From contig NW_006767437.1 of assembly GCF_000264995.1 (NCBI RefSeq), forward strand, positions 426,158-490,157: DNA of 64,000 nt. The letters run 5' to 3'. This DNA is from Punctularia strigosozonata HHB-11173 SS5 (Eukaryota > Basidiomycota > Agaricomycetes > Corticiales > Punctulariaceae). This document shows, piece after piece, positions 1,993 to 29,524 of this stretch. The position numbers and the translations under genes are program-made. Numbering within the stretch: the first letter of the stretch is position 1; each line of letters begins with the position of its first letter. The notes beneath the pieces are model-generated. The model ran no database searches. It was not told the origin of the DNA and saw nothing but the letters and a program-made list of their open reading frames with translations.

Positions 1993-2487
1993 TACGAACT
2001 CGGTCTCTCCTTGCTTTCTAAACTAGTCTATGTGTTTGTACGGTGCGTTCTTTAGCAGAAATGTGTAGTTAAAGTGCAGTATGCTACTCTAATTAGGCTC
2101 CGGTGCCACACCCGTTACGAGGTGGTGGTGGTAGCCTGAGAAAAGAGTCCACCAAGTGTTGGGATTTGTGAATACGGGCTACATCATCTGCTTGTCACCT
2201 GCTCCAGCTGGTGCGAACCCTTGCCAGGAATATCAGCTTGGCGCGTTTCCGAAGTGATTGTGTGTTGTCTAAGTATCGTATGTGTTGTAGAGTATACCGT
2301 CCTAGAAAGCCTTGCACTGCTAAGCTGAGGACTGACCACGTGATCATCTGGCGGACTGTCTCCCAGAGTTGCGGGGCAGGTTCGTTTCGCTACGTACTGT
2401 TGCCCGCGTCCTCTATACTATACAAACAGGCGACTCTCTCGCCCTGGCTACTTCACAATCTAACTGGTGTGCGGTCTCTACTATAAG
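1993..2487. other. Intergenic; LINE 5' region and kinase promoter
   Basis: I see no coding region. It should hold the 5' end of the LINE and the upstream region of the kinase. No target-site duplication could be placed because the other end of the element is outside the window. Confidence 0.5.
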
Positions 2488-5324: not shown

Positions 5325-7194
5325 TCAATCCACATTGCGCCGCCTCAGTCGTACCCAGTCATGAGTGGGCTTATGCATAAGCTTCTCCGTGGTCTGTAGC
5401 ACAAGGGACTGGGGAGTGATGTCGTATCGCTGGAGTAACGTGGCCACGATCATCTTCAGCTCAAGTATGGCAAGGCTATAAATCCGTCATGAGCATGTAA
5501 AACGATATTATGCATTGATATCGACCTTTTGCCAAGGCAGCCTCTGGTACCCGAGCTGAATGCCATGAAGTACTTGGTGAGGGACGGATCTTCTATCCAG
5601 CGCTCGGGTCTGAATACGTCTGCATCTTCTCCCCAGGCTGCACGATCGCGAGACATGGTCCACGTAGGCACAGATACATCGGTCTATTCCGTGCAGGGGA
5701 AGGTCAGCTCACGTCGACGCGCACCCCACGGCGAGGGTGGAGGAGACGTACACCTGGCGGGAAGTAGTAGTCCCGGTACGTGAGACCCCCCTCCGGTACA
5801 ATCCGAGGCAAGCCCATTCCGGTTGGTGAGTGCAGGCGGATAGCCTCATGGATGCATGCGTTCAGGTAGGGTAGATCGTTCAGATCCGATGTAGGGCCCT
5901 GGAGGCCCCCTGGAGAGAGCGCCTCATCGAGCTCTTCCCTGAGTTTGGCAAGTGGTCGAGGGTTGACTGACAGCGCATGGATGATTGCCGTGATGGCATT
6001 CGAAGTCGCGTCTGTGCCAGCGATTCTGGTCAAACCATGATTAGAGCCGAACCTTCGTCAGTGGCATGACTGAGCTTACAGCAGAGTCAGCGCCTCAGAT
6101 GTAAGCTCCTCCACGTCCAGATGGTTTTTGTATTCCATGTGGGCTGCAATGAGATGACCCAGGATGTCACTCTTGGCATCGTCGCTGCCACTTGCGAGTC
6201 GTTGCTTGATGCACATCCGGGCGATGTCGCGCAACTCGTCGCTGCTCTTGCTACCCTTCTGGAAGAATGGATCCGGGATGAGGCGTGCAATGTACGCAAG
6301 AGCGGGCGCCCAGCCAATAACGGTCAGGTAATGCTCGCGCTGCCAGAAGGATTCAGTATCGAGGGTAAACAGCGATTGCGCGCTCGTTGAGGACTTACCA
6401 CGTCCGTGTTCTCTATGGCGCCTTTCGGTGATCCTGCCTGGAGAACGTCGGATTCCTGGAGACAGGCGAGTCAGATGTGTATGGTGGTATCGTAGTGAGT
6501 GACGTTACCTTCTCCAACATGCCGAGTGGCGTCCCAAAAGCCAGCGTCGACATGATGTCAAAGACGAGGTAGTTTGACCAGATGAGCATGTCGATTGGGG
6601 CCTTGTCAGGCTCGCCAGGCAGCGCAGCTCGCTTGTCGAGTTTCACCAGCAGTTCCTCAAGGAACCGATGGACCGTTGTCGTATACGACCGAATCGTTTT
6701 AGGCGCAAATGCACCAGAATAATTACGACGCTTCTGTGCGTGCTCTTGCTTGTCCCGAGTGCTGAAGATGGACGGCTTCTCGGACAGGAAGGCGTCGTAA
6801 AACGGCGACTTGTTGAAGGCCGCCATGCCTTGACCGTAGATAGAGGGTAATAGACTCATGTCTGCGATCGAGACATGGTTCGGCGAGATCCTCACGACAG
6901 GTCCATATGTCTGTATTCAACATCAGCAACAATGGACTTTGGAGGAGACATAGCATAATAGACCTTATGGACAGCATGGATGGCTTTGTAACGGATGCCG
7001 AAGCGTGTGTAGAACGCCTGCCATAGGTTCGACCAACGAGCAAGGAGCGGTCCAGGGACCTTTTGCAAGGGGTCGCGGCTGACGGCGACGATATAGCCAA
7101 CAACTACAGCGGGGAGAAAGACCAGCCAGGTGTAGTCCTGCATGGCCTCAGGCAGGTTGTGTGTTGCTGAGGAAAATAGGGTGGAGTTCTGCAT
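5325..7194 (-). CDS. Cytochrome P450 resembling CYP53 (benzoate 4-monooxygenase type)
   Basis: Seven phase-compatible exons (7194-6964, 6910-6509, 6455-6399, 6339-6080, 6025-5752, 5683-5526, 5475-5325) give 510 residues, the normal P450 length. An N-terminal hydrophobic anchor is followed by a Pro-rich hinge (KVPGPLLARW). The I-helix reads AGTDATSNAI, the ExxR motif is in HEAIRLHS, the PERF-type motif is FRPERW and the haem loop is FSSGTRGCLG with the Cys ligand. The N-terminal block around VRISPNHVSIAD resembles CYP53 benzoate para-hydroxylases, which hydroxylate aromatic acids in the ER. It lies 573 bp downstream of the second P450 on the same strand and near the PKS, so it may be a tailoring enzyme or an independent detoxification gene. 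Subfamily is an estimate. Confidence 0.88.
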
Positions 7195-7767
7195 GGCGGA
7201 GGGGCTCGGGGGCTCCCACCAGTAACCATCGGTCAGAATTCATGGTGGTCCTTAGCAAGCTCCGTCGTGAATTCGGAATTGGAGGTGTGACGGTTGAGAT
7301 GGTCGGATCATTTCTTATCCGGGGACCTGCGTCAATTTCCAGTCCCGATGGCATCTGGGAAGAAGCACGGTAGCTCGCTGCGCGTTCCGAGCCGGCTCAT
7401 GTTGGACGTCGGTTCAGCTGACAATGGAATCTTGATTTCTAATATTGTCCGCCTGGGACGGTACCAGCTGATTGGGAGCACACCATGAAACTTTTCAAGC
7501 ACAGAGCGCCCTCAAGGCCTAATCACCACTGATCGTCGTCATCCCGCTCCTCCCGGTAGTCAAGTATAGAATCAATATTCTGGGGCTCAGACGGCGTCGA
7601 GGGAAGCCGTGATCTTTACCTCGATGGCCACTACAAACAATGCCTGACACGCGCCACCGCCAAGCCCCAAGCCAGCGTCAAACGAAAGGAGGACGAGCCA
7701 GAACAAATGAATAAGAAACAATGATAGCTACGCTGCGTAAACAACACACGGTTAAAACTCCCGTAGC
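7195..7767. other. Intergenic between the two minus-strand P450 genes
   Basis: Holds the promoter of the CYP53-like gene and the 3' end of the next P450. No gene is visible. Confidence 0.5.
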
Positions 7768-9851
7768 CTAAGCCCTTGGCGTCAGAACGACCGGCATCGG
7801 GCCGCGCGTAGCCGTGAAGTAGTCTCCGATTTTCTCCTCCCATTCATTCGCGTTCCAACCATCGGCGAAGCGGAGTTGGAAGGTATGCAAAACGAGGCAG
7901 ACAACCATCTTCATCTCCATCGTGGCGAATTTCTTTGCGACGCACATAGCAGGTCCGAACGAGAACGGGATGAAGGCTCTAGTTTCGAGAATGATCGAGT
8001 TGGGGTCCTTGTACTCCACGACCTCGTTCGATTTTCGCTGCGCGTGGTCCAGCCAGCGGTCGGGCCAGAAGCCTTCGGGAGCTGGCCAGAAATAGCGAGG
8101 GTCACGTTGGATCGAGTAGGTATTGCTATTGAAAACGGCGCTCGGTTAGACAGCCCACGTTGATGGCAGATAGCAGCAGCGAAAACGCACATTTGGACCT
8201 GCGTTCCCTTGGGAATCCAGCTGCTAGTAGCGTCAGAATGAACGAGTGCTTAGGAGACAGACATCCACGTACTGGGTTCCCGCCATCTTGCCGTCAGTGT
8301 ACTGCGTACTGCGCTGCGCGCCACTAGGTACCGGTGGCTGCAAGCGGAGAGTTTCGTTGCTGTCCGTAAGAAATCCAGTTAACGAGCATTACTACCCTTA
8401 TCCGCCGAATCGACTCACATAACGGCTTCGAGATATGGCAGCTCGCTTTGTTTAGCAACATCTGTTGCCGGTGTTCCACGAGGGAACGCGGCATCGATTT
8501 CCGCTTGCAGACGCTCGTAGCATGATGGGTGCCGTAAGAGGAACCAAAATATGTTCGACATCACATGGGAAGTCGTGTCGCTCCCTGTCACGCATCGTCA
8601 GTTATACCATCATATGCAGAGGACCGCCTAGAAGCTTACCGGCCGCTATGGCTAGAATACCGTCACTGAGAGCCTCCTCGAGAATCGGCGGGTGGGGTTC
8701 AACGCCAGCCTCATCGAACTAAATCGCGTGTTTTTGAGCGACGATCGACTGAGAAAACGAGAGGCGTACGATATAATGGAACAAGTCCTTCCGGAGCGAA
8801 CCTTGCTTGCGACGCAGGTCGGCGCGATTGATCGCGAAATCTCTGAACTTGGAGTTTCCGAACTTGGGAAGTTTGGCAAGGTAGCGGAACAGCCACGGAA
8901 CGTGACCAGTCATAGACGTAGACTGGGTGCCCTTCTCGATCAGGTGCAGAATATTGCCCTGGTCACCGTCCCTCATCATCTCGAAGCCGCCACCGAACCT
9001 GCAGGTAATCCGCTAAGTGATTGCAATGGACGGCAGTCAGGCCAACTTACGCCATGTCACCCATGAGATCGAATGAGAAGTAGCTTATCCACCGAGCGAG
9101 ATTGACAGGGTTGTTCTGCTTTCGCAAACCATCAATGAGCTGAAGAGCTCGGCTTTCAAGAATCTCTTCATAGCCCTTCAGCGACGCCGAGCTGAACCCG
9201 CGGTTCCAGGGCTTGCGGCGACGTGAATGTTCAGCGGGGTTGCGTTCTCCAATCAAGCTAGTGGTGGCGCCGGGAGGGACACGCCCATCCCAAACTGTAG
9301 GCAGTGTCAGCGAGAGCACGTCGGGGCGATTGCGGGCAACGACGTACGAGGACCCTTAGGTAAACCGGTGGTGCCCAAGATAGGTTGGATGGCATCGACG
9401 TCGCAGATGGATAATTCGTTGGGGCCGGTCCGGACCCAAGTGCCAAACTGCCTATGCATATGTTGATAGAAGAAGTGCTGTTTGCCTTGAGACGTGATGT
9501 GCATCATCCAGAATTTGCTGAGTTTGTTCAGAATCGGTCCGGGGTACCGCGCCAAAGGGTGGAACGGCGAGACACGATAAAGTAGTACCGACGCGCCGAG
9601 GACTCCGTAGAACTCAAGAAACAGTAGGGGCCATGCGAGGGCGATACCAGCGTACTTCAACGCAAGGCCAGTGGTGACTGGGACGCCGAGCAGCAACGCC
9701 GACAGCGGCCATGCTTTCTCACATTCGAAGCGATTGAAGATGGCGTGCACCGCCTGAAACGAAGGGGTGTGAGCCTAATGCTACAGGAGGGTAGGAGGTG
9801 TTCTACCATAGCGGCGCCTGCGACGGCCACCACGTTGTCCTCCAAACGCAT
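7768..9851 (-). CDS. Cytochrome P450 (second cluster P450)
   Basis: Nine exons (9851-9807, 9753-9348, 9294-9051, 8998-8770, 8718-8640, 8584-8419, 8359-8273, 8223-8191, 8125-7768) give about 548 residues. The short first exon is needed for a normal start: its 15 residues join in phase to a hydrophobic stretch typical of fungal P450s with several N-terminal membrane helices. Motifs are AGSDTTSHV (I-helix), NETLRLQP (ExxR), FWPDRW, and a haem loop FSFGPAMCVAKKFA. The usual Arg of the haem loop is Ala here and the Gly two residues after Cys is also Ala, as in some basidiomycete families. The exact acceptor of exon 8 has an alternative three bases away. It is oriented head to head with the PKS, so shared regulation is plausible. 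Confidence 0.88.
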
Positions 9852-10359
9852 GTTGGGTCGTTTGGAAAGTGGGAATCACCAGAGTCGGGTCGCGCAGGTT
9901 AAGACAACACCCCCAGAATCCGGTGGCAGAAGCGACGATTCTGGAATCGGACCGATAGGATAGACAACGAGCGGCGACATGGGCTCTTTGAGAAATATCT
10001 ACAAGAAGTCGTAGCAATTCACCGGCATCAGGGAACGAGGAAGCTCGTCCAGGGACGACGGATCTGAAATTCTGGACGGACGTTACCACTCCGGCAAGCA
10101 CTGAATCCGTTCTGAGCCAGCTCAGCTGTACCTATCAAGCTTCACTCGGAAGTTTGAGCATGATGACCTCCGGGATGATCGCAGCAGAATTGAAGGTGAG
10201 GCTGGGCATCGCTCCAAGTACGTACCCGAGGGCCACGGGAAGCGCTATCCATGACTGCGCCGTGATCGCGGTATGTAAGCTTGAGTCACAAAGCGAATCT
10301 ACGTGTCTATACGCGATCTAGTTAGGCTGCGAAGTAACTGAGTGTAAGCGTATAGGTAG
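9852..10359. promoter_or_regulatory. Upstream region of the P450-2 gene
   Basis: This is the divergent interval between the P450 and the PKS side of the cluster. I see no supported gene. A short open frame from 10159 was considered but not called. Confidence 0.4.
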
Positions 10360-11276
10360 TTAATCAGCAATGAGCGCTGAAGACAAATTGGCGCGCAAGT
10401 GACTGGTCCTCACCATTTGCATCACGAATGTCACGTCACCCTCTTGCTGACGACCACCGCCTGCCGACCCAGTGCATATCTTGGAAGTTCGAACACCAGT
10501 CGGCACGGCCTCGCGTAGACTCGCATGTACCGACGGCGATGCACCCTGCCTGGGCTTCGTGTGCGAGTGGGTGATGGCCCCACCAACTCCATGTGGATCG
10601 CTGGCGCTTTTCCAATTGTCCGCCTGGGTCGTTCGCAAAGATGTCCCATCGTGGATGGCATCCGTGATTGAGGGTGGGCATTCACTTTGAATCTCCGGCT
10701 GGGCGCTTCCAGAACAACTCACGATGTTGCAGTGCTGTGTGCATTGCTTCCGGGCTCTGCGGACATGACGCACGCGGACGCGATTACCTCCAAAGACAAC
10801 CCAATTGGATGGCTCGGAGCATCAACTTCGTCAGGGACTATGCGACTTCCATCGTCGGGCATAGTGACCGCGGATGCTGCATCGATCACCGTTCGGTACG
10901 AACTCCCTTTACATCGTGAAAACCGCTGCTATGTGGTGCACGTAAGCAAACTTTCGGGCTGAATGGGAAATTACTTGCCATCAGGTTTCAACTCCTCGGC
11001 ATATCCACTCGCTTCTCGAAACGCGGAAGTATCCGCCCGTGGATGAGAAATCCACTCGGTAGTTTTGCGCAAGTCCTGTCCAAGATAAGCTGGAGTAATC
11101 AAATGCCGTAGTGTGACACAAGCCAGTTGGTCGACGCTCGGATCATCGGAAAGGGACGTATTCCAGCTTAAGATCGCTACCGGCATCTCCGGGAAATCGC
11201 CTTCGCATTGCTGAGACTGCGGGACTGGTGCTGTGAGGGAATCAGTGCGGGGCATCTGAAGTTCCCCGCCCTTCAT
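10360..11276 (-). CDS. Possible unrecognised small gene between P450-2 and the PKS
   Basis: A minus-strand frame from an ATG at 11276 (or 11255) codes about 100 residues that look protein-like, including SDDPSVDQLACVTL and EWISHPRADTSAFREA. It can be extended in phase through a possible GC-AG intron near 10969-10898 into a segment reading SSYRTVIDAASAVTMPDDG. Left of about 10770 all three minus frames are open and I cannot choose between them. I recognise no family. The putative start lies only 60 bp from the PKS start on the other strand. It may be a real orphan gene, a decayed gene, or chance open frames; splice sites and 3' end are uncertain. Confidence 0.3.
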
Positions 11277-11335
11277 ATAGGCAGTGCGTGAACGGAGCTC
11301 GCCATCTTTACGCCAATCGCGACATCGTGACCACC

Positions 11336-14300
11336 ATGCGCACCGAAACTGCCTGCCCAATCGCAATCGTATGACCCATGATTCGTTCGAAGTCGAAGTA
11401 CTAACTTCAGTTTCTCCAGGTTGGAATAGCGGCTGAGTTGCCGAGCGGCGAATTTGCTGCAAACAACCTCGACTACAACGCGTTCTTCCAATTCCTCCTC
11501 CAGCGAGGAGAGTCATACGAATTCATCCCAAAGGACCGCTTCGACATAGACTCGTAGGTCATGCCGAACCTGCATATGAATAGCGTCGTCTCATAGTTCC
11601 GTCACAGCTGGAGGGGAAAGCAGCTGGGACGCATCATTGCGGAACGCGGATCCTTCCTGAAGAATCTTGATTCGTTCGACTACCTCGAATTCGGCATAAC
11701 GAGCAAGGATGCTCGTGCTATGGCCGTCAGCACCCGGAAGCTCATTGAGCTGTCCTTCTTAGCACTCCTGGACTCCGGCATAGAGTACCGAGGCAGGAAC
11801 GTCGGCTGTTACGCCTCCGGTAATGCATTCGATATCCTGAGCGTCGGTACCGCGGTAGGTCTCCATCTTCCGATGCTATATGATCGACAGCCCTCACTTT
11901 CTTAACCAGGATGAATTCGAAGCGCGAGGATCCTTCGCCGGAATACCTGCTCAGATCGCGAATCGGATTTCATACCACCTGGACCTGTTAGGTCCTTCGG
12001 TGCCGACAGATACCGCATGCAGGTGAGCGAGCTCGGTCCGGCTGCGAGTAGAGGAGACTGAAAGATTGCCTTGCAGTTCATCTTTGACCGCGATGCATCT
12101 TGCCATCCAAGCACTTCGCACGGATGACTGCGAAGCTGCAGTCGTGGGCGGAGCCCAGATCAACCAGAGGTAGTCTTTCTCGTGTTGATGGACAAGATAG
12201 ACAGCTGAACCAATCGGCCGTGGCAATAGATTGTGGGACTTCGTCCAGTATACACAGGTAAGGCTTCCGGAGCCTTGGAATGAGTTCTGTCGTTTCTTAT
12301 TCCCATGCTTTAGGGCGGTGTACTCGCTCCCGACGGCAAGTGTAAGCCGTTCGACATGGGAGCAGATGGGTATGCGCCCTTCGAAACACGGTCGCGGATC
12401 AGCCGCTGACATCGTTGCAGGTTCTCTCGTGGCGAAGGTGCTGTAGTAATGGTCATCAAACCGCTGGAGGCAGCGCTTCGCGACGGTGACAACATATATG
12501 GCACGGTCAGCTGGTTTCGTCTTCTCGACATGCTCTGTCTCACGTGCTTCCTTTTCATACAGATCTTGGGCACCGGCATTAACAGTGCAGGATCTGAGGC
12601 TCCGGTGAACGCACCGGCAGCATCAGCTCAAGAAGACACTATGCGTCGTGCGTTCAAGCAAGCGAATCGCAAGGTGGAAGATCTCGATTACGTCGAGCTG
12701 CACGCGACCGGGACTGCTAAGGGAGATCCCACGGAGGCGAATTGGGTGGGAGCCGCCTTCAGACGAGAAGACGAACTTCTCGTTGGGAGTGTGAAAGGCA
12801 ATATAGGGTGAATCATGCATCAGGCTGCTCACGTTATACTCGTTAACCACTCAATGTTATCCAGCCATCTCGAGATAACCGCTTTCCTTGCGTCGGTCTG
12901 CAAGGTCTGCGGTATATTTAACTCCGGAATCATTCCTCCCAACGTCAGCCTAACCCGCCTAAACCCGGCCATAAAATGGGACGAATACCGTATGCGGGTG
13001 CCTCTCGAGCCAACACCGCTGTCGTGCCGCTCTTCCAGCGGTAAGTCCCTTGTTTCGATCAACAGCTTCGGCATAGGAGGCTCGAATGGACACTGCGTTA
13101 TGGAATCTCCTCCGGCTTCACTACCCAAGCCGGTTTCGCTGGCTGAGGGCGCGCCTGTTCTCTTGCTCGCCGGTGGATTATCTCCGCGTGCAACTACTGC
13201 AGTCTCCGATTCTCTCAGCGAGCTCGTCCGGGAACGGATCTCTCAGATACCCAACATCTCCACTCTCTACGGGCGACGTAGCCGCCAGATGACATGGCGA
13301 AGTTTTGCTGTTGTGTCGCCCAGCGACATGACTAAAATCAGGTTTTCGCAACCCACTCTGACGCCGCGAGCCCGTCCAGCTGTCGGTTTTGTATTTTCCG
13401 GCCAAGGTCCCCAACATATGCACAGTATGTAGATATTTTCTCTCGTCCGCAGTCATGGCTAATCACCAGTTCGCAGTGGGTCGTCAGCTGTACAAAGAAT
13501 TCCCGGCATTCCGCGAAAGCGTCACGACTTTGGACGGGGTGTACAGCCAGGTGGTCGGCCATTCTCTCGTGGAGAAAGTGGGCATGTTCAAAGACATCGG
13601 CGCCGCATCCTCCTCCATGCCTGACGTCTGGCCTATTGATATCATTCTCCCCGCGATCGCCATGGTTCAGATCGCATTGTTCGACCTCCTCGCCAGCGTC
13701 GGAGTACGGCCTGATTTTGTCTTGGGCCATTCCGCCGGAGAGACCACGATGTTGTACGCGTCCGGTGCTGCCCCTCGGGCTATGGCTCTGGAGCTCGCGA
13801 TCGCGCGAGGACAAGTCCTGGCCCTCACTGAAAGCGCCGGCGGCACCATGACCGCCTTGTCCTGCGGGCCTGAAGTAGCGAAGCCTCTACTCGACGAGGT
13901 GAAGGCGACGCGTGACGCAGGCATCCTCGAAATCGCATGTCACAACAGCGCGGAGGCCATCACGATTGCCGGCCACGATTATCTCGTTGACGCAGCTGTG
14001 GAACTCTGCAAGTCGAAAGGAATTGCCGCGACCAGACTGCGTACATCCGTGGCCGTGCACAGCTCAATGATGGAGCTTTGCAAGGACGAGTACTACGAAC
14101 GTGTCCTGCAAGTCTTTGCGAAATATCCCGAGGCGCGCTTAACGCCAAATGTGGACACATTCTCCACCGTAACGGGCGAAAGGCTGGCGGAGCCGTTCTC
14201 ACCAGACTACTACTGGAAAAACACTAGGGAACCGGTGCTATTCATGGAGACCGTTCGCTCTGCTCAAGCCGCGATATCCGGGCGTAATCTATTAGTAGTC

Positions 14301-17300
14301 GAAGTGAGCCCGCATCCAGTTCTCTCCGCGTACCTTTCCGCGCTTTGTCCGGAATCTGCAACTATCGTCGGTCCGATGCGACGAACGAAGCAGATGTTCC
14401 CACATTTTGAGCGTTCTACCTTCTTGCAAGCGGTCGGGAAGCTCATCGCGGGCGGTTACAACTCAACCGACTTCCCCGCCCTCAACGGCGGAGCGTCGCA
14501 GCACGTGGAGTTTGGTGTGCCTGCATATCCCTTTGCACCGAAGAGCGTGCCTCATATGGCGAAATTACCGGAGAACGACGAGATCTATGGGTCCCGACTA
14601 GGACCCTTGAACCATTCTCGACTTCGCCTCAATGCGGCGACTCATCCAGATCTCGCGCAACACGTCATGAAAGGGGAACCGATTGTTCCTGCTACAGGTT
14701 TCGTGGAAATGGCTCTGGAGTTCGGTGCGAGATCTTTATGGGACGTGAAGTTCCTCTCCTTCCTATCTCTTTCGGCGGAGGAACCTGTCCGCGTCCGCTT
14801 CGAGCCCGACGGCTTCAAGTGGTCGATCAAGACAACTTCATATAGCTCACATGGTTCTGGCGCGGCCAGCAAGAAGGTATTGCAAACCCTTCGTCGTCGT
14901 TCTTGAAATGCTTAACGTTGGTGTAGGCCGAGCGATTACATGCTGGCGGATACTTCTCGACAGAGCCAACAGCCGCCAACCCCCCTTCTCCTCGTCTAGA
15001 CGAGATTCGGGAGAGGTGTCATTGGATCAACGTCTCAGGTATTACTAGTTTTTAAGCATGAATGATGACTATTGATATCCGACGCCGCGCCTCAGGCTTC
15101 TATGACGACCTCCGCTATTTCGCTGAATACGGCCCATGGTTCCAGATGATCACGTCCGTTCATCGCGGCGAGGAAGAATTTTTGGTCGAAGTTGATACAC
15201 GGCGGCAGGGCGTCAATGTTCCGTGAGTTCTGATATCCGGCCATGTTGCTCCTTGATTCACTTCCTGCAGGACATCGCATTATGTCTTCGATCCGGCCAT
15301 CCTCGACGCATGCATTCACGTTATGGTCCATCCCATGATCACTGGCAACACTGATCGCAACGTATACTACTTACCATCACGTTTCGATTTTTTCTCGACA
15401 TATGACGCCTTGCATCGTCGCGAATTTACGGACAAGTTGTATGCGCATGGGTCTCGAGGAAGATGGACCCCGGGTATGTTACCTCTATTATTCCTCCAGA
15501 CAGATGCTGAGCCCTTACACAGAGGGCATAACCTTCGACGTCCTGGTAGTCAATAGTCAAGGAACGCCGTTGTGCTCCTTCCGAGGCTTTGAGGTCGCCT
15601 ACCACGGTTTAGCGCCCTCGGTGGGAACGCGCTATGATCTCGAATACACCACTGTGGCGAGCCTGGACCTGAATGCGCGCGTTCAGAAGGCGGACTCGTT
15701 CTCGTGCGACGAGATTACTAAGGTCACAGATCGCACCCTCTACTTCCGCTACATACGAGGCAAGGAGGATTTACTGCGTAGTGAGCTCGAGAAGGTCGAC
15801 CTGACTGGGTTGTCCATTTGGTTGCTTGCGCTCTCCGGCGTCGACGGCGACGCTGCCCTTGGGTTTTCGCGTTCCTTACGACGCGAGCTACTAGCGAACG
15901 AGGTGCGCCTGGTGATATTCGAGGCTCGCATATCATTCCCGGCACAAGTCGAGGTGATATCGGGGTTGTTACAAGAGAACGTCGCCGAGGATGAAATCAC
16001 TGTGGACTCCACTGGTCGGGTTCTTGTTCCTAGGCTTCAAGCGTCGTCACCTCCAGTAGAATCGACTTCTCTGAATCCCGACGCACCTTGGTCTGTGAAG
16101 CGTACTGGATCGGGAGATTCGAAAGCAGTTATCGTTCAAACATCGCCGCCCATTCCCGAACAGCATGAAGTCCTGGTGAAGGTCGATTACGTCGATACGC
16201 TCCAGCAATCGGGCATTTGGGCCTTCGTAGGGCGTACCGATTCCGGCACTGCTGTCGCTGGACTCGCCTCTGATCATCTGGCAAGCCATGTTGTCGTGCA
16301 TCGCGCAGTCGTCACCGAGCTGTCGAACATCGGGTTCGACACCGCGGCGCGTCTTCCTGGTTACATTGCAGCTCTCTCGATCGGTTTCCTCGCTTTGGGA
16401 TTCAAAGCGGAGGTTCCCAGCCTCCTCGCGCAGAACACAGCGCTGGTCACCCATGCCGACACGCTGCTAGGTACCCTCCTTGTGGAGCTTCTCAAGGACA
16501 GAGGACTGCATGTCACGGCTGTGAACGAAACCGACGGCCTTAGTACCATCTGTGGTCTGCAATCGCCAAAGTCTTTCGACCACGTTTTGAGTGGATTCCA
16601 CGATCCCGCCTCGCTCAGCGTCCTTCACAGTATCTGTTCCACAGAAAATGCAGTCTTCAGCTGGAACCATCCCGATCGCGGCATTGCTGCCATTTTAAAG
16701 AATGATCCCTACAGAATCGGTTACGCGCTTCGTTCCGGACTTAAGTCTCTTCCATCTTCATACAAGAAGATGGAGTACAGCATGCCCGTTCACCGCCTTC
16801 TCCCTTTGACCTCCGACGTGACCATCCTGGATAACACTGCGATATTCGACCCCGCGAAGACATATATATTGTTCGGCGGCATAGGCAGCTTGGGGTTGCG
16901 CATTGCGACTTGGATGTATGAGGTATGAGCCTTCCTTTTTCTTGTACGGACCTGTTTGACAGGCGCTACACAGAACGGCGCACGCCATCTTGTCCTGACT
17001 TCCCGTTCCGGTCGTGAAACTCTCACAAAGACCAAGAACTTCGCCGCCATGCGTGTTCTGCGCTATTTGACGGATTTAACTGACCTCGACATCAAGCTTC
17101 TCGCTTCCGACGCGACGAACGTCACAGATCTCCGCAGAGTGCTATCCGCGATAAGTTGTCCCATCGGCGGATGCATGATGCTAACAGCTGTCCTCGAGGA
17201 CAAGATGTTCGCTTCGTTAACTCAAGACAGCTTTGAAAGGGTCTTCGCCGCGAAGATAGGAGCCTTCAACGCCCTCACTCAGGCGCTCGATATCACCAGT

Positions 17301-18970
17301 CTCGATTTCCTGATCACTTTCACGTCCATATCAGGCATGTTTGGCAGCGCAGGACAGACCAACTATGCTGCGTATGTGGTTGCTTGATACTGCGTTTGCA
17401 ACGAGCCTTACTGGACTCAACAGAGCGAACACCGCGCTGGAGGCTTTGACTCGGCCTTACCCAAATGCATTCTCCTTGGTGGCACCCGCGATGCTCGACA
17501 CGGCTATTGTCTTCGCCGACGAGCAAAGCAAGACTACTCATAACACCAAAGTCCGCCATATTAGTGAATGGGGCATGTCGTCGCGAGGTTAGTTTCTATA
17601 CTAGATGACATAGCACATCGCTCATGTTGATTGCAATAGAGCTTTGCGCATGCATCGAAGATGGCATCCGCAAACTGCGGAACGGGCCATTCTGGTTATA
17701 CGTTCCCGATTTCAAGTGGGCGGCTGTCCGCGATAATCTTGGCGTCTCTCCCGTCTTCGCACATCTCGTTCCGGAGGTTGATGAAGACACGTCAACAGCG
17801 GACGCAGCCTCCAAAGACTCTAGTGTCTTAGATATTGTCCTCAAGGTCCTGGACTTGGATAAGGATGACTTTTCCTTTGAGGTTCCACTCACCGCATACG
17901 GACTCGACTCGTTATTGGCGTCGAAGCTTGCGGTAACGCTTCGCCCTTGGGTTTCAATAACCCAACTGCAGCTGCTGGCAGATATCACGTTCGAGGACAT
18001 ACAACGACGGATAGAGGCGCAGGCCGGACAGGAAGTCGAACAACCGGCCGACAAGGACTTCTTTGACTGGGAGGAAGTCATGCGTTCCGGCCCCGCTTGC
18101 GTCAAGCTCACCGATGGGGAAGGCCTGCCGCTGTTCGTCCTCCATGGCCCTGCCGGCACTATCGAAGCCTTCGGCCACATGCGACTCAATTTCAAGCATA
18201 CTCCGCTCTACGGAGTGCAAGCCACGAAGGACGCGCCTTATGACAACCTCGACCGCCTTGCCGCATTCTATCATTCGAACATCAAAAGCGTACAACCGCA
18301 AGGGCCGTACCGTTTGGGCGGCTTCTGCGGCTCTAGTTTACTACTTTTCATCCTCGCGGATATCTTCCGCAAAAACGGCGACATCGTCGTGCAAATGTCC
18401 ATGATCGATCATTTCCCTCTACTATACACCTCGCCCATCTGGGAGCTGGACGCCGCCACGGCCAAAGATCGCTGCGTTAGTGCCGCCCTGAAGTCCCGCG
18501 GTTTCGAGTGGATCATGAACTTGTATCGGGTCGAGAAAAATCCCAACGAAAAGCGCGCCGGGGAGGAGCTGATGAAGGCTGGGCTGGGCGAGAAGGTTCA
18601 GCCGCACGTCAAGAAGCTGTACGAAAACACGATGGTGTTCATCGAAGCTCACGCATCGTGGCTCGCTTCGCACTTGCTCAAGGAGGGCGAGGAGGTTGAC
18701 GGTACGATACTGCGTGAAAGACTCATCGCCTACCTGTCAACATTCGACTTTCCCGCGACGGTGTACGCTGCCAAAGACGGTATGCAGAAGATATTCACGG
18801 ACGAGCAGCAGGCGCAATGGGCCCATATGGGCGCAACGATGTGCACCAATCCCATTCGTGTCGCGGAAATCGAGGCGTCGCACTTCGATATCCTCAGCAA
18901 CCTGGACTTCATACATAGACTCGATACCGAAGTAACTCTCACTGCATCTAATGTAATGAAGGCTATGTAG
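11336..18970 (+). CDS. Type I iterative reducing polyketide synthase (KS-AT-DH-psiER-KR-ACP-TE)
   Basis: Eighteen exons in perfect phase (11336-11368, 11420-11553, 11608-11854, 11910-12022, 12077-12169, 12230-12257, 12314-12369, 12421-12505, 12563-12807, 12865-13424, 13477-14876, 14927-15038, 15096-15222, 15271-15450, 15500-16922, 16974-17371, 17424-17587, 17640-18970) give 2242 residues. The start at 11336 has a strong context and leads at once into PIAIVGIAAELPSG of the ketosynthase. KS: active Cys in DTACSSS (about 175), His in ELHATGT and GNIGHLE. AT: GHSAGE, with catalytic-type His in VHSSM. DH: HVMKGEPIVP and DPAILDACIH. KR: FGGIGSLG (about 1595), with Ser and Tyr in SISGMFG and TNYAAANTA. 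ACP: YGLDSLL (about 1887). The C-terminal thioesterase has GGFCGSS at the nucleophile elbow. No methyltransferase motif is seen. Between DH and KR lies an enoylreductase-like region lacking a glycine-rich cofactor motif. The expected product is an unsaturated, partly reduced chain. Confidence 0.93.
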
Positions 18971-19564
18971 ATTTTAATGATAATCTGTTACCTGCCATGG
19001 TTGCGACTCTTTGACATTATAACTGCGACTTAGAGTGTCTTGTCGGCCGAAATCTGTGGATATGATTAGGTATCTGAATGCAACATCCGTGAGCCGTCAG
19101 GCTGGTTAGTATCAAGCCACGAGCAACCGCTGTTTCCTCCGCCGATGACGGTCAACGCGTATGGTTGAATTTCGATGCCACGGCTGACTTTCCTCATGCC
19201 GCGGAAAAACTACATACATCGGGAGTTCGGACGCGTGCGCAGCGCATACGTATCCTGCCCGAGGTTACTAAGGGGCAGTACCGACCAGGTGGTTCTCGTT
19301 CATTTGAAAGCATGATGGAGAAGGAGGTGAATAAGCCGGTTCAGCTGCTCGATTTGTGAGCCGAGCTGAGCCGGTAAGTATTGGAAATGACGTGGGTTCA
19401 ATCTCCATCATCCGAGCTCTTCGGTGGGTCTCTCTCATTCTCACGTTGATCCCACCGCACGCTTCGCTTCGAGTACTCCGAGTTCTGACAATGCGGCATG
19501 TTTGGGGGCCCACGTCGTGTTGTCGCTTGACCATCCACTGTTGCTGCGAGTGCATCCCCCGGTC
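18971..19564. other. Intergenic PKS-MFS
   Basis: Contains the PKS 3' region and the transporter promoter. No gene is visible. Confidence 0.5.
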
Positions 19565-21638
19565 ATGTCTGATTCCCAGTCTACTCGAGAAACAAGTGCC
19601 GCTTCCCCCTCGAAACTGGAATCGGCACCGTCAGAGAAACCCCCGCAATCGCCTGAGGCGAAAGAGGCCCAGGAGACTCACTCGGCGGACGACTACCCTG
19701 ATGGTGGTCTACGGGCTTGGGTGACGATCGCTGGCTCGTATGCATTGAACGTTCAGATGTTGTCCCCCTTTTCTGATTTGTTCCAGAGCATGCGTCATGT
19801 TCTGCACGTTCGGCATGACTCAAGCATTTGGCCCGTATCAGGACTATTATACGGCAAGTTGTTTCATACGAAAATTTCATAGAATCATCTTATACAGAAC
19901 GTCGCTCAGCGCTTCCTATTGAAGAACCATACTCCATCTGAGATTGCATGGATTGGCTCTGTACAGATATTCTTGCTCTACTTCATGGGCCTCTTCACGG
20001 GCGGCTGGTAAGTATTGTTTTGGGAGATCTGTTCGATTTGGCTCACTTGCTGCAGGTTTGATGCAGGCTATTTCCGACGCATGCTAATCCCGGGCGCTAT
20101 CTTATACGTATTCTCGTGCGTGCTCGACCCGACGTGCACGACAACAGACTGACATTGTACAGGTTCTTTATGCTGTCACTATGCAAGCCGGGCCAATACT
20201 ACCAGTTCTTATTGTCACAAGGGTAATGCCTTTAACAAACCCGATCACTGCGACGCTCATAATCAACAGATTTGGAATGGGGCTGGGCATGGGCCTCATG
20301 TGCGTACCGTCGATCTCCATCATCGCACATTATTTCCGTAAGCGGCGCGCACTTGCGTCCGGATTGGTATTTTCCGGTGAGTGCATACATATGCCTTCGC
20401 ACTATACATTCATCTCTTGGCCTAGGGACATCGTTGGGCGGAGTGATTTGGCCGATCATGACAAACAGACTTTTGTTGGGATCTACCGGATTTGCTTGGG
20501 GCGTCCGGTAAGTCATTTCATGTCATAGGATGTCATGATGCTAACGGACCCCCTCAGTGCCTCCGCCTTCCTGTGTCTCGGAGTGCTGTCGTTTGCCGTT
20601 CTCATGATGCGGCCTCGCTTTACCAAGCAGGAGCACCGTGCTCGTCAGCCGTCCGGAAACTTGCGCAGGATCTTGACAGATGTGACCTGGGGAGTTTGTC
20701 TTCTTGGGTAATCGGTTCTGCATGCATCTGTGTCCGCGACTCATTTGCATTTCCAGAACCTTTGTCGTACTTCTTGGCTTGTCGTTCCCTTGTGAGTGCT
20801 TTTCCCTTTTGCTGACTGCTTCAATGACTCAACAGTCGCACAGTCGTGTATCTACAATTATTTGCTGCCCTTCACGGTGTTCCGGCGCACGTCACGGACT
20901 ACACGGCATGTTGTTCGCTGATTTGTCTGATAGCAAAACTAATCTAGGTCTTGCACCAGCTTGCGATACTCTTCGCGTCCGGCACTCTCTTCGGTCGAAT
21001 GCTCCCAGGCATTCTCGCGGACAAATTCGGCGTGTTGAACGGTATGCCCGTTAAATATCCACAGGCATGATCATAAACTGATTGAATTGCAATCCAAGTC
21101 ATGTTGCCGTACACGATAGTAGGCGGGGGGTTGATCTTCGCCATGTTCGGAGCAACCAACACGGCCGGACTTGTCGTATTCGCTGTCTTGTATGGCCCAT
21201 GCGGTGGAGCATGTACGTGAGCTTTTTGGGACGTTGCACCGGTCTGAACTGTTCTCTGCAGTCAACTCCCTATTTGCCGCGTCGATAGGAAGTTATATGT
21301 ATGATATTTCCGAGTTTGGGTCAGTGGGCCTCGGTATCTCGGATGACAGCACCAGAATACTGACCAGTCTCGGGATGTAGGCTCCGTCTTGGTCTTTGCG
21401 GCGGTATCTTCGGCATAGGGTATCTCATTGGGTCCCCCATCACGGGAGCCCTACTACAACCCCCGAAATATACATGGAAGCCGGCCATAATCTTCAGCGG
21501 AGTGAGCGTTCCTTCGCGACCACCGCTCCAGTCCACCTTGCTGACGCCAGTGCTCAGGTAACCGTCTTGGCTGGATGCGCTATCATCCTTGTGTCTCGTC
21601 AGATGTTGGTACGAAGGAAAGGATCGCAAAAAGTTTAA
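19565..21638 (+). CDS. MFS transporter, monocarboxylate-transporter-like
   Basis: Fifteen exons (19565-19737, 19787-19853, 19898-20007, 20056-20115, 20163-20222, 20270-20376, 20426-20507, 20558-20707, 20757-20791, 20844-20905, 20960-21041, 21099-21212, 21262-21319, 21381-21501, 21558-21638) give 453 residues with twelve expected membrane helices. An acidic, polar N-terminus precedes DYPDGGLRAWV, a hallmark of fungal MCT-like MFS proteins. Other typical blocks are TFGMTQAFGPYQDYYT, TPSEIAWIGSVQ, GMGLGMGLMCVP, RKRRALASGL and GTSLGGVIWP. Two introns (19854-19897 and 20906-20959) fit only with GC donors. As neighbour of the PKS, on the same strand, it is a candidate exporter of the product; family members may instead import acids. 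The acceptor before exon 11 could also lie at 20947. Confidence 0.9.
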
Positions 21639-23190
21639 TATGCTCTGCCTTCTGTGCGCGAGTATAAATCACATTCAACATAGATAAATAGCTATTGCTG
21701 TTCATCCAGCATGGTATGGTGCCGTTACAGGGCATTTAGCATACAGTATTGGGCTTAATAACGGTCTATAGACCCCTATGATTGCAATCGACGGACCTTC
21801 GAATGCTTCCGCGAGTGGATGGCGATGTACCACGCGTGCGATCCGTGAACGCCATCACGCTTGCAAATCGCGAGTGTAGGCTACGGCCGCGCATATGTAA
21901 GCAGGTAAATACTAGGTGCTCCTCCTTCCCCCCCCCCCTCACCGCTGGCTCCCCTCCTGAACTCGACGACTGCAATGTTGGCCTCTGTCGCTACCCCGCC
22001 TGCGAGCTGAAGGCCCGCATCGACTGTGATGTGATTCTGGGCCTGGGACGATCCGCGGATTTACGTGATAACGCCTGTGAAGCAACACGCGTGCGCTGCT
22101 GCTGCTTGCCCTTTGTGCGAGGTATGGACTTGAGAGAATTCGTGCGATGCGAGGAGAAACTTGGATTGCGTCACTTGTGGTTCTGAAAATCGAGCTTGGG
22201 TTTCGCTGTGCGACTCGACTGCCTGACTGCTACTTGCATCACCAATGGAGACACGCTCAGGTCCAGGGTTCCGAACATTGTACACAGGAAATATTCGTTC
22301 TTCGCCATCAACCATCCTCAATACAGTTTCACACGTCTCCGACGACCCATACAGACCATGGATGGATTCCAGTAGACACGCCTGCGGTCTGTGATGGGCA
22401 TCCTGTTGCGCTGTATGCGCTCAAGATCAGAACATGATGGGTTGTGCGGAATGTTCCACCGTCTCGGAGAACTTGGCAGTGAGGTATGTGCAGCGTAACT
22501 CCATGCGATTGCAGTGCGATAACCAGGAATAACAAGGTTACACGGCCCAGCTTTCCCACTTCTTCGATACTGCTCCCAATTCACCGTGCCATTCGGACCG
22601 AGACGCAGTCCTTCGCTTATATTCGCTCTCCACCAATCCCGACCATCGCCCGGCGGCGTTCGCGTGACCCGCATCAGTGCGCGTGCATCGTCGCCTCCTG
22701 CGGCGGTGCGGCCTGGCGTCTCTCGTCACAAGCATTTTTCTCTCACATGGGCTCGCATCCTGCTTACTTCCCGTGGAAGTCGTACCCGCAGCCGTCATCA
22801 TCGAAGGTTTCCCGTACGAGGGTGTTATCCCCGATTCCAACAGCTCACCTCGACGCCAGGCGGATCCTCTCGCTACTCACGCACGTTCAGCTGCGACTCC
22901 GCGTACCCCGCGGTCGAGATCGGATCGAGCATGCTTTATCTTCGTCCCATCGTTGCTCCCGTATGACGAGTGTCGTTTGGTCTCTTGTACGGCATCGGAA
23001 GCAATGACTATGTTGAGGCACGCCTCAGAAAAGCTTCCGTGTATTTCGCAAGTGTTTTTCGTCGGTTATTATCGTGATACAAACGTTTGGCCGCCGTGCA
23101 GTTTGATCAGGCTGCGGTCTAGGCTGGTGACAAGTGTACTGAATAGAAAAACCGACGGAGTTGCGGGGTGCTTCAGGACGTTCTTCCACC
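21639..23190. other. 1.55 kb without a supported gene
   Basis: Open frames occur on both strands (for example 22318-22840 minus and 22677-23190 plus), but none shows a recognisable family or clean splice extension. The right end should hold the GMC promoter. Confidence 0.45.
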
Positions 23191-25684
<2,494 letters not shown>

Positions 25685-27360
25685 GGTGGGGGTTCATCCG
25701 TGTAATCTCAGATTATCTAGATAGATCCACGTTGTCAGCTAGGACCGTGCTACCGAATGAACGAAGTGAAAACGTGCACAGGATGTAGCCTCGTTGCTGC
25801 TGACGAGGCTAGAAAATACTCGAAAGAATGAAGACGGGTCTCGCGATAAGTATGTCCACTGGCCCTACGGCTATACGCGCGAGCCCACAAGTTTGTTCAA
25901 TTCTAGGCTCTCCAACGTCCATGCAGCCGCGGAGTGCTCCCTTCATAATTGTTCGACAGCATTCCAGCACGCCAGGAACGTCCTCTTGCGAGTGAAGGCA
26001 GGGACAGCGTGCTGCGGAGGCTCGCGGAGACAGCAGCGGAGTTTACAGGCGAGAGTGGCGGCGGCGCGGAAGACGGAGGTATCATTGTTTCCTCTCCGGT
26101 AGTGTTGCCCAATGGCCGTGGCTGGCGTTGCGCTGGCCACCGGCTATACCATATGGCTTGTCGGCCAGCTGTCAGCCATCCGGTGGAGGCCGGCCATTCG
26201 CCGGCTACATGGCTGGCCCATGGCTGGCGCGCTGAGGCCCGTTCTGGTGACTGAGATCACGTGCCAATCACTACCGCGAGCGCGGTCGTGTTCCATCCGG
26301 ATTTTTTGATCTACTGGCTCACGCGCTATGTTAAGGAGCTGATACTGCTGCACTATGAGTACATACGAAGACATGCAGGTGGAAGGAGCCGATATGTGAG
26401 TAGGCCCAGGCTCTTGTCGATCAGCAGTGAATCGGCGGCTTCCGAGGCCGGAGGAGCTTTCCGGAATGAAACGAAAGTCGGGAGGCGCGATCGCGCTCGT
26501 TCTCGCGTCGACGCCACTGAAGCTGGTTGAACAGCCTCGGCAGTGGGTCATTGAATCACCTTAGGGTAGTCTCGAAACGCCTACGGTAATAGGCTTAAGT
26601 GGAATGCCATCCACGAAGGGCTTACTGAACATCTTTGGGGCAGTCATCATGCCCTCATTCACATAAGACCGGTGTTTCCGACTAAGCGCGTGTTTCCGAG
26701 CCCAAAGTATGTATACTTGTTAAACTGGCTGACGCCAGCTGCAGTTATAGCGCGACCGCAGTCACCCGTTATCCACAAGTTATCACCGTTGAACATCGCA
26801 CCTGCAAGGCATTACAGCGCATGGCTAGGCTCGTGGAGACATCTCAATCTCTGCCTACCATGGACATAGACCGCATGAAGGCACTGTGGGGTACGTCGCT
26901 CTACTCACGATCGCGCGGCAATCGAAAGCCGTATACAGATCCGCCTCAGATACAGGTAATGTACCTCCGTTTTCGAAGCTCGTTCAAATCAGTGCGATAT
27001 GATATCCGTTCTACTCCAGATTGCGAATCCGTGATTAAGCTCCTTATCATGTATGGGTTCGTCCGTGAAGGTATATATCATTACTTTCTTCGCTTCGATA
27101 AGGTCATACTTACGTGTTTAACGTACACTAGTACGAAAACGCAGCTGCATATCTTGCACTGTGCTCTGATTTCGCATGCTATTCGCTCACATGAACGCCG
27201 ATTATCTGTAGGGCCACGCTTGACTGCAGGACAAATGGCGTTCGATTACCATTGTGAAAGCCGCGCGGCATAGATCGGATACTTATACCGGCTTTAAACC
27301 CCTGCGTTGTCACACCTGAGGACTTAAGGCTGACCCCCAGCAGCGAACCTCTGGTACAAC
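25685..27360. other. 1.7 kb without a supported gene
   Basis: Includes a GC-rich patch at about 26110-26240 in which TGGCTGG/GGCCAGC-type words recur on both strands, then an AT-richer stretch before the third P450. Open frames such as 26821-27273 plus lack recognisable domains. Confidence 0.45.
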
Positions 27361-29524
27361 ATGGAATCCCTTCCGATAGGAGCGGTCGGCGTCTTGCTGG
27401 TCTCGATTCTCCTTTTCTTGGCGCTTCGACGTTCGAAGCAGCGTCCTCCCCTGCCACCGGGGCCCAAGGGACTCCCTTTGATAGGCAATCTCTTGGATAT
27501 GCCAACGCATTACCCATGGAAAACCTATGTAGAATGGGGGCGCAGATATTGTGAGCCAATTAGACGCGTAATGTTATACCCGCGTGGCTGAAGCATGATT
27601 ATCAGGCTCAGACGTGGTGCATATTCAATTGTTGGGATTCCATCTAGTTGTCATCAATACAGCACGAAGTGCGGCTGAATTGCTTGATAAGAAGTCGACG
27701 ATATACTCGGATCGGTACGTCACCATAGAACCTGCCTAGTATCCTCGAACTGACTTAAACTCAAATTGAAGCCCATGGCTGACCATGATGTGCGATCTGT
27801 AAGTCATGCCGGTAAGAGCGACGTCAGTAATATGGCTAACGGTGGGTGTGAATACGCAGGGCGAACCACGCGGACTGGGATATAGCGTTAATGTCCAACA
27901 ACGCTAGATGGAAGGCAAGCCGCGTTCAGTACCAGAGAGTTCTTAGCAGCGAAAGGTCGAAACAATGGAGGCGAAAGCAGACCTTGGCCGCGTACGCATT
28001 CGGTCGCTCTCTGCTAGATGCGCCCGGAGAACTCTTTAAACATACACGCTAGTGAGCTTGAATGTGCGGTTGTCTGGTTGTTCTGATACTGATCCTGCTT
28101 TTCAGCTCTGTAGGGTCTAATATCCTCAATGTGACATACGACATACACGCGTTACCCAACGGCGATCCCTGGATCAATCTGGCAGAGAGAGCCAACGAGA
28201 TCGGAAACGCGGCTATAAGCCCGGGATCCTACCTTGTGGACGTATTTCCAAAACGTGAAGTGTTGTGCCTACGACTTTCCTGCTAGCACCAGCTGATACT
28301 GGGGTTTGCTGCCCAGTCAAATACCTTCCGTCTTGGTTCCCTGGCACAGGGTTTAAAAGAGACGCGCTTGAATTCAAGAAGGTCGGGGAAAGCTTGCTTC
28401 ACGATCCGTATGATCACGCGAAGAGGATGATGGTATGAGACAGTTGTATCACACTCAAGCATTCTGTCTGAATAAACATATCGCACCAAGTTGACGCGCA
28501 ATAACGAGGAATCTATCGTCTCCGAGCTTCTTGGAGAACTTGACGATAGCGCAACTGCTGAGCAACGACGGGAGGTGGAGATGACGACGAAGCGGAGTAC
28601 ATCGGTACTCTACGGGGCCGGCGCCGAAACCGTAAGAGGCCCTCGTCGTTTCTACAGCTGAGGGTTGACGACATCATTGCGCAGAACGTCGCAGCCTTGA
28701 ATACCTTCTTTCTGGCTATGCTGTTGTATCCAGACGTTCAAGAGAACGCGCGGAAGGAGGTCAGCAGAGTCACCAAGGAAGGCCGGCTTCCTGACTTCTC
28801 GGACGACTTGCCATATATACGCGCCATCGCAAAGGAGTGTCTTAGATGGAGGCCGCCCGTCCCGCTGGGTAGGTTCTACAACCTATACTGTGCGGGCTTT
28901 GCTCAAGGTCGAATGATTCATAGGCATTCCACATCGGGTCACCCAAGATGACGTTGGGCTCGGTTACAGAATTCCCAAGGGATCTATAGTGGCCGGAAAT
29001 ATCTGGCGAGTGCCACTGCCAGTGACGCGTTGAATCCATGAATGACATTTTTATACAGGGCCATACTGCACGATGAGCACGTTTACCCCCACACCTCGGA
29101 ATTCGACCCAAACCGCTTCATGGGCTCGGACCCTAACCCCGACCCGGACGCCGTGTTCGGCTTCGGCAGGTGTGCTTGTTGCTGGACCACGATATGCTGA
29201 TGCGTTTGGACTGAATGAAAGGGTCTCTTAGACGTATTTGTCCGGGTCGGTTCTTTGCCATCGACGCGCTCTGGATCATGATCGCTACCACCGTCGCGGC
29301 GTTCGACATTGAGAAAGCGCTCGACGCCGACGGGCGTGTCGAAGAGCCCACGGCACAGTATACGTCGGGTTTCCAGAGGTATTTCTTTCTCCGTTTCGCA
29401 GGGTCAGGAATGTCGAGTTGACTCGGTCGCCTCCAGCCGCCCACTTCCTTTCAAATGCACGATCAAACCCCGTACACTGGAGATGGCGTTATTGGTCCGC
29501 TTGACCGCCCCGGATTCCACGTAA
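27361..29524 (+). CDS. Cytochrome P450 (third cluster P450, CYP2-clan-like, OrdA type)
   Basis: Twelve exons (27361-27550, 27606-27714, 27772-27798, 27860-28051, 28106-28254, 28317-28432, 28491-28631, 28685-28868, 28924-29005, 29059-29169, 29232-29378, 29437-29524) give 511 residues. An N-terminal anchor (GVLLVSILLFLAL) is followed by the hinge PPLPPGPKGLP. The I-helix region reads GAGAETNVAALNTF, ExxR is ECLRW, and the haem loop is FGFGRRICPGRFFA, a canonical sequence. Intron 29006-29058 must use a GC donor (GCGAGT) to restore GNIWAILHD. One exon is only 27 nt. It resembles the O-methylsterigmatocystin-oxidoreductase-like P450s that are abundant in Agaricomycetes. It closes the cluster on the right; a tailoring role is inferred from position. 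Confidence 0.9.

What the first reader, a model, noticed from the sequence alone, without database searches (positions are those of the whole stretch)
5325..29524. Intact reducing-PKS cluster with three P450s, a GMC oxidase and an MFS transporter
Six neighbouring genes (two divergent P450s, PKS, MFS, GMC oxidoreductase, P450) all read through as intact proteins after hand splicing, over 24 kb. The combination of a TE-ended, non-methylating, partly reducing PKS with a secreted aryl-alcohol-oxidase-like enzyme and three different P450 types is not one I can match to a named basidiomycete pathway. The product is predicted to be an oxidised unsaturated polyketide; this is inference from domain content.
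Basis: partly seen in the sequence, partly recalled or inferred. Interest (0 to 1): 0.78.

Follow-up and report, generated by a model that had tools for sequence, protein, structure and literature searches.

The report
Uncharacterised mushroom polyene-type polyketide locus
A wood-rotting fungus carries an intact polyketide-making gene of a known mushroom type, lacking the usual methylating part and ending in a release domain that has a cysteine where most relatives have a serine, beside oxidase and transporter genes whose membership in one pathway is only partly supported.

Summary
In detail: six spliced genes at 5325-29524 read through intact; the PKS and GMC models agree with deposited ones. 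The source is Punctularia strigosozonata HHB-11173 SS5. The PKS is KS-AT-DH-ER0-KR-ACP-TE without methyltransferase.

A domain after the ACP is not new: LpaA ends in a TE, the strobilurin PKS in a hydrolase plus methyltransferase. New here is the TE nucleophile, Cys2025 (GFCGSS), with Asp2052 and His2210 kept. Cys stands there in 9 of 33 TE-bearing relatives aligned, Ser in 24; the tree needs at least 5 changes. The predicted fold is closest to human fatty-acid-synthase TE.

Support for one six-gene cluster is uneven. A relative of the MFS lies 4 kb from the genome's other TE-bearing reducing PKS. Three P450s beside a PKS is unusual (0.3% of equal windows hold three). By a contig-length proxy, GMC and P450-B do not accompany the PKS in its nearest relatives; the GMC resembles an ordinary aryl-alcohol oxidase.

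Most likely: an uncharacterised unmethylated polyene-type pathway of PKS, transporter and probably P450s. Product, co-expression and the role of the cysteine are untested.

The parts
5325..7194 (-). P450-A, 510 aa, 7 exons; heme motif FSSGTRGCLGK; membership in the pathway unproven
   Evidence: PF00067, E 1.9e-70
7768..9851 (-). P450-B, 547 aa, 9 exons; nearest listed relatives are Boletales P450s of 50-52% identity; heme loop FSFGPAMCVAK lacks the usual R and final G of the consensus (consensus recalled)
11336..18970 (+). Reducing PKS, 2238 aa, 18 exons: KS-AT-DH-ER0-KR-ACP-TE, no methyltransferase
18056..18967 (+). Thioesterase domain, residues 1935-2238, inside the last exon
18326..18328 (+). 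Codon TGC of Cys2025 at the TE nucleophile position (Asp2052 at 18407-18409, His2210 at 18881-18883)
19565..21638 (+). MFS transporter (monocarboxylate-transporter type by eye), 453 aa, 15 exons; a relative lies beside the second TE-bearing reducing PKS of the genome
23191..25684 (+). GMC oxidoreductase, aryl-alcohol-oxidase-like, 597 aa, 14 exons; membership in the pathway doubtful
27361..29524 (+). P450-C, 509 aa, 12 exons; heme motif FGFGRRICPGR

Best explanation
An uncharacterised biosynthetic locus built round an iterative, partly reducing type I PKS of the basidiomycete TE-ended kind. Shown: intact genes, domain order, no methyltransferase or enoylreductase domain detected, cysteine at the TE nucleophile position with Asp and His in place. 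Inferred: the PKS condenses malonyl units, reduces and dehydrates each ketone but neither methylates the chain nor saturates the double bonds, and so builds an unbranched polyene-type acyl chain; the chain moves from the ACP to Cys2025 of the TE and is released as an acid or passed to another acceptor; one to three of the neighbouring P450s oxidise it; the MFS protein exports it. The GMC oxidase is more likely a neighbouring aryl-alcohol oxidase of the wood-decay set than a pathway step.
For: Intact domains and active-site residues. Same domain order as LpaA apart from the missing MT; LpaA makes polyenes on its own (passages). TE fold model with mean pLDDT 88.5, Cys91/Asp118/His276 of the model at the ends of strands 85-90, 111-117 and 267-275; best structural matches are human FAS TE. 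A relative of the MFS, the closest of 10 paralogues by identity (47.7% over 329 columns; next 44.2%), lies about 4 kb from PKS P0007, the other TE-bearing reducing PKS found in this genome. Three P450 genes lie within 24 kb of this PKS and none was detected within 25 kb of the six other KS places; 0.31% of 24.2-kb windows hold three or more of 96 detected P450 loci, 2.2% over seven KS places. GMC: nearest listed relatives are three paralogues of the same species on other contigs, and the best solved relative is aryl-alcohol oxidase.
Against: No expression data, no product. The tree of MFS paralogues is unresolved, so co-duplication with the PKS is not shown. P450-B shows no shared contig with any of 91 listed PKS relatives except one 12.4-Mb contig of Mycena sanguinolenta. 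P450-A, P450-C and MFS were not tested in other species. The P450 statistic is post hoc, P450 detection is incomplete, and two of the seven KS places look like a fatty acid synthase and a thiolase by eye. P0007's precomputed Pfam list lacks the TE family, so its TE rests on my alignment. For the GMC, one listed relative (Mycena metata, P0201) shares a 510-kb contig length with a PKS relative (P0017), which would favour membership.
Confidence: 0.55

Rival explanations
1. All six genes form one co-regulated cluster, the GMC oxidase included: the secreted flavoenzyme oxidises an alcohol made by a P450, outside the cell, to an aldehyde or acid.
For: Tight spacing over 24 kb, bounded by a protein kinase gene (2633-4966) and a PAP2 gene (30172-31364). 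The strobilurin cluster also holds a GMC oxidase gene beside its PKS (passages). One Mycena metata GMC shares a contig length with a PKS relative.
Against: In the two nearest PKS-holding species with a listed GMC (Stygiomarasmius scandens, Dendrothele bispora) the GMC lies on another contig than the PKS. The nearest listed GMCs are same-species paralogues elsewhere in the genome. No co-expression data.
Confidence: 0.25
2. The genes are mere neighbours: the PKS makes its product alone, as LpaA does, and the P450s, transporter and GMC serve other tasks.
For: LpaA is reported as the sole enzyme needed for laetiporic acid. No conserved neighbourhood was found for GMC or P450-B by the contig-length proxy. 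P450s also gather elsewhere in this genome.
Against: P450 density beside this PKS and the second MFS-PKS pair on C13.
Confidence: 0.2
3. The cysteine in the TE is neutral drift: Ser and Cys both work as the acyl-carrying nucleophile and the TE is an ordinary hydrolase.
For: Ser and Cys alternate on the tree (at least 5 changes in 31 scored rows), including within the nearest clade (Dendrothele has Ser); the Asp lies 27 residues on, as in FAS-like TEs, and not at the ObiF/SulM position.
Against: Cys is kept in 4 of the 5 members of the nearest clade that have an aligned TE.
Confidence: 0.6

Closest known systems
LpaA of Laetiporus and PPS1 of BY1 (basidiomycete polyene synthases; PMC7473843, passages seen)
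   Same: Iterative reducing PKS, inactive ER, DH and KR kept, TE after the ACP
   Different: They carry a methyltransferase and make methyl-branched polyenes (LpaA 2729 aa); here no MT, 2238 aa. Their sequences were not compared with this one. Whether their TE nucleophile is Ser was not seen beyond the paper's 'canonical active sites'.
Strobilurin PKS StPKS1 (PMC6158276, passages seen); Mucidula mucida P0039 as a same-architecture relative in the database
   Same: Reducing PKS with an alpha/beta-hydrolase after the ACP; GMC oxidase gene in the cluster; P0039 aligns to this PKS at 32% over 84% of the searched part
   Different: Extra C-terminal methyltransferase, Ser nucleophile, benzoyl starter, and a phenylalanine ammonia lyase gene, none of which was found here
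Marasmiaceae-type relatives: Stygiomarasmius scandens P0002, Marasmius sp. AFHP31 P0003, Dendrothele bispora P0005, Tetrapyrgos nigripes P0006, metagenomic P0004
   Same: Nearest clade (support 100); 41-47% identity over the searched part; Cys in P0002, P0003, P0004
   Different: Ser in P0005, no TE in the deposited P0006; none characterised as far as the listings show
Cys-nucleophile TEs ObiF and SulM (PMC6668435, PMC11298585, passages seen)
   Same: Cysteine nucleophile in a TE domain
   Different: Bacterial NRPS, Asp at the later position, beta-lactone or beta-lactam formation; here Asp sits at the earlier, FAS-like position
Aryl-alcohol oxidase (PDB 5oc1, 3fim)
   Same: GMC fold, E 7e-155 over 31-593, both His-bearing motifs
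   Different: Substrate of this enzyme unknown

Membership tests
Basidiomycete polyene synthase (PPS1/LpaA type) | KS, AT, DH, KR, ACP and TE on one chain | tested here: met
Basidiomycete polyene synthase (PPS1/LpaA type) | Non-functional ER | tested here: met
   No ER family found by Pfam; the region corresponding to the nucleotide-binding motif reads VTHADTLLG (sequence by eye). The Lys-to-Gly site of LpaA was not checked.
Basidiomycete polyene synthase (PPS1/LpaA type) | Methyltransferase domain | tested here: not met
   No methyltransferase family; protein about 490 residues shorter than LpaA
Basidiomycete polyene synthase (PPS1/LpaA type) | Polyene product | not testable with these tools
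   needs expression
Strobilurin PKS | Hydrolase followed by C-terminal methyltransferase | tested here: not met
   TE present, protein ends 28 residues after the TE histidine, no MT
Strobilurin PKS | Phenylalanine ammonia lyase gene in the cluster | tested here: not met
   No such gene among the predicted genes at 1-31 kb; identities by Pfam for the six genes and the kinase, PAP2 and PALP flanks; no separate PAL search was run
Beta-lactone/beta-lactam-forming Cys TE (ObiF/SulM) | Cysteine nucleophile | tested here: met
Beta-lactone/beta-lactam-forming Cys TE (ObiF/SulM) | Catalytic Asp at the later position (ObiF Cys1146, Asp1254) | tested here: not met
   Asp2052 lies 27 residues after Cys2025, after strand 111-117 of the model
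FAS-type TE fold | Alpha/beta hydrolase with FAS TE as nearest solved structure | tested here: met
Aryl-alcohol oxidase (GMC) | Both catalytic histidines (recalled) in the aligned motifs | tested here: met
   alignment to 5oc1
Co-regulated biosynthetic gene cluster | Conserved neighbourhood in relatives | tested here: inconclusive
   Only GMC and P450-B tested, through contig lengths, 120 listed hits each; MFS-PKS pairing found at a second locus of the same genome
Co-regulated biosynthetic gene cluster | Co-expression | not testable with these tools
   no expression data

The most novel reading that the evidence does not exclude
The cysteine TE of this PKS clade does not simply hydrolyse: holding the chain as a thioester, it passes it to an alcohol, amine or its own hydroxyl, so the locus makes an unmethylated polyene ester, amide or lactone, a release chemistry not known for mushroom reducing PKSs, with Ser and Cys versions alternating in nature as a ready-made comparison.
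Probability: 0.18. Interest if true: 0.65.

Novelty: new variant of a known kind. Interest (0 to 1): 0.38.

Why it matters
Very few basidiomycete reducing PKSs have a known product, and how they release it is hardly studied. This one lacks the methyltransferase of the characterised polyene synthases, has close Ser and Cys versions of the same TE in sister species, and has a second Cys-TE relative in the same genome, so the effect of the nucleophile on release can be tested directly.

Tried and rejected

Tried without result: the tree of MFS paralogues did not resolve. The search of P450-A against solved structures returned mainly P450 BM3 entries at E about 2e-22 and named no useful relative. 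The conglobatin paper, opened for TE cysteines, spoke of KS cysteines. The four papers listed for Punctularia strigosozonata with 'polyketide synthase' were seen as a listing only and not opened. One search, run with 3 of 5 terms, listed mostly unrelated papers. Synteny in other fungi could not be read directly, since no fungal genomes other than the window's own were available to me; the contig-length column was used as a proxy (92 of the 120 listed PKS hits, the fungal-like top part, against 120 of 3220 GMC hits and 120 of 642 P450-B hits). That proxy found 510112 (Mycena metata) and 12434857 (Mycena sanguinolenta) shared by PKS and GMC besides the window's own contig, and 12434857 by PKS and P450-B.

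Rows dropped: 59 of 92 aligned rows did not pass my TE filter; at least two of these (P0011, P0049) carry the TE family, so the 9 of 33 is of rows that could be aligned, not of all TE-bearing relatives. P0003 and P0076 lack the His column in their deposited models (His kept in 31 of 33, Asp in 33 of 33). The tree used 54 of the 92 rows plus one gene model of C13; 31 rows had a Ser or Cys state. P0092 is a long, doubtful branch there.
Full report
Source. The window lies on contig C5 (426158-490157) of a 33.57-Mb genome in 32 contigs. The PKS and GMC match deposited proteins of Punctularia strigosozonata HHB-11173 SS5, and the contig length of 2271234 given there equals that of C5.

Observation. 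I wrote a small gene finder, trained on long open frames of the window, and corrected the models by hand. Introns are 44-68 bases, GT-AG but for three GC-AG. My PKS agrees with the deposited one in 2231 of 2238 residues; my GMC is identical to the deposited one. P450-B found no protein of this strain among its 120 listed hits, so its model rests on my splicing, its Pfam match and its match in the genome.

The PKS. Pfam finds KS, AT, DH, KR, ACP and TE, and lists neither a methyltransferase nor an enoylreductase family. Active-site residues are in place (motifs recalled). LpaA of Laetiporus is KS-AT-DH-MT-ER0-KR-ACP-TE, 2729 residues, makes polyenes alone, and shares 68% identity with PPS1 (passages). 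The strobilurin PKS carries a hydrolase and a methyltransferase after the ACP, and its cluster includes a GMC oxidase gene (passages). So the domain order here is that of LpaA without the MT. I did not have the LpaA or PPS1 sequences to align.

Relatives. Searching with residues 1050-2238 gave 883 proteins, 120 listed. Apart from the window's own, the nearest are Stygiomarasmius scandens and Marasmius sp. AFHP31 (47%), a metagenomic protein (42%), Dendrothele bispora (41%) and Tetrapyrgos nigripes (44% over 73%). On a tree of 55 rows made without the TE, these and the window's PKS form one clade with local support 100. Other relatives end in a reductase-like domain (PF07993) or show no release domain in the listed Pfam families. 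Strobilurin-PKS-like proteins such as P0039 lie in another part of the tree.

Is it one cluster? (a) P450s. From exon-level hits I counted 96 P450 loci in the genome; 0.31% of 24.2-kb windows hold three or more, which for seven KS places is 2.2%; no P450 locus was detected within 25 kb of the six other KS places. The count is a lower bound, the test is post hoc, and two of the seven KS places look like a fatty acid synthase and a thiolase by eye. The three P450s are only 23-27% identical to one another, so they are no recent tandem copies. (b) MFS. One of 10 paralogues of the transporter lies at C13:161413-162818, about 4 kb from PKS P0007 (C13:166908-174503), whose TE also has Cys. It is the closest paralogue by identity, 47.7% against 44.2% for the next, but the tree is unresolved. 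By arithmetic, 10 loci falling at random within 5 kb of a 7.6-kb gene have a chance near 0.5%. None of the other four neighbours matched the fetched stretches around the other KS places. (c) GMC. Apart from itself its nearest listed relatives are three paralogues in this species (51-53%) on other contigs; the best solved relative is aryl-alcohol oxidase. In Stygiomarasmius and Dendrothele the listed GMC is on another contig than the PKS. One Mycena metata GMC shares a contig length of 510112 with a PKS relative, which may be real or chance. (d) P450-B. Nearest relatives are in Boletales (50-52%); no contig is shared with the PKS relatives except a 12.4-Mb contig. (e) Borders. A protein kinase gene with a weak fungal KA1 match lies at 2633-4963 and a PAP2 gene at 30172-31364.

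Working model. Shown: genes, domains, residues, fold model. Inferred: unbranched polyene-type chain, transfer to Cys2025, release, oxidation by one or more P450s, export by the MFS. The GMC is probably a wood-decay aryl-alcohol oxidase next door (my odds about 65 to 35).

Literature. Ten paper searches listed no paper that characterises this locus; passages of five papers were read, no whole text. The library lacks most subscription journals, so this is weak evidence of absence.

Verdict. A new, uncharacterised variant of a known kind, with one testable twist, the cysteine thioesterase.

Noticed in passing
G000 C13:115001-185000 (L009-L015): A second metabolite-rich region: a PKS without TE (123639-130511, -), PKS P0007 with a Cys-TE (166908-174503, +), an MFS relative of the window's transporter (161413-162818), and by eye two FAD monooxygenase-like genes, another MFS, an SDR and two adenylate-forming-reductase-like genes.
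   Followed up: partly
P0039, P0046, P0048, P0054, P0058, P0059, P0065 (strobilurin-PKS-like clade): The strobilurin paper says the PKS hydrolase lacks the cognate Asp and His; in these seven relatives both columns are Asp and His in my alignment. StPKS1 itself was not available.
   Followed up: partly
P0007, P0019, P0071, P0072 and others: Ser and Cys alternate at the TE nucleophile across basidiomycete reducing PKSs, as do TE, reductase-like and no release domain.
   Followed up: partly
window 7768-9851: P450-B has the heme loop FSFGPAMCVAK, departing from the usual consensus (recalled), and no deposited protein of this strain was listed for it.
   Followed up: no
window 279-2022 (-): Two overlapping open frames with zinc-knuckle-like cysteines that look like a retroelement gag by eye; Pfam finds nothing.
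   Followed up: no
window 30172-31364 (-): PAP2-family membrane protein (PF14378) with strong codon bias, probably the right-hand border of the locus.
   Followed up: no
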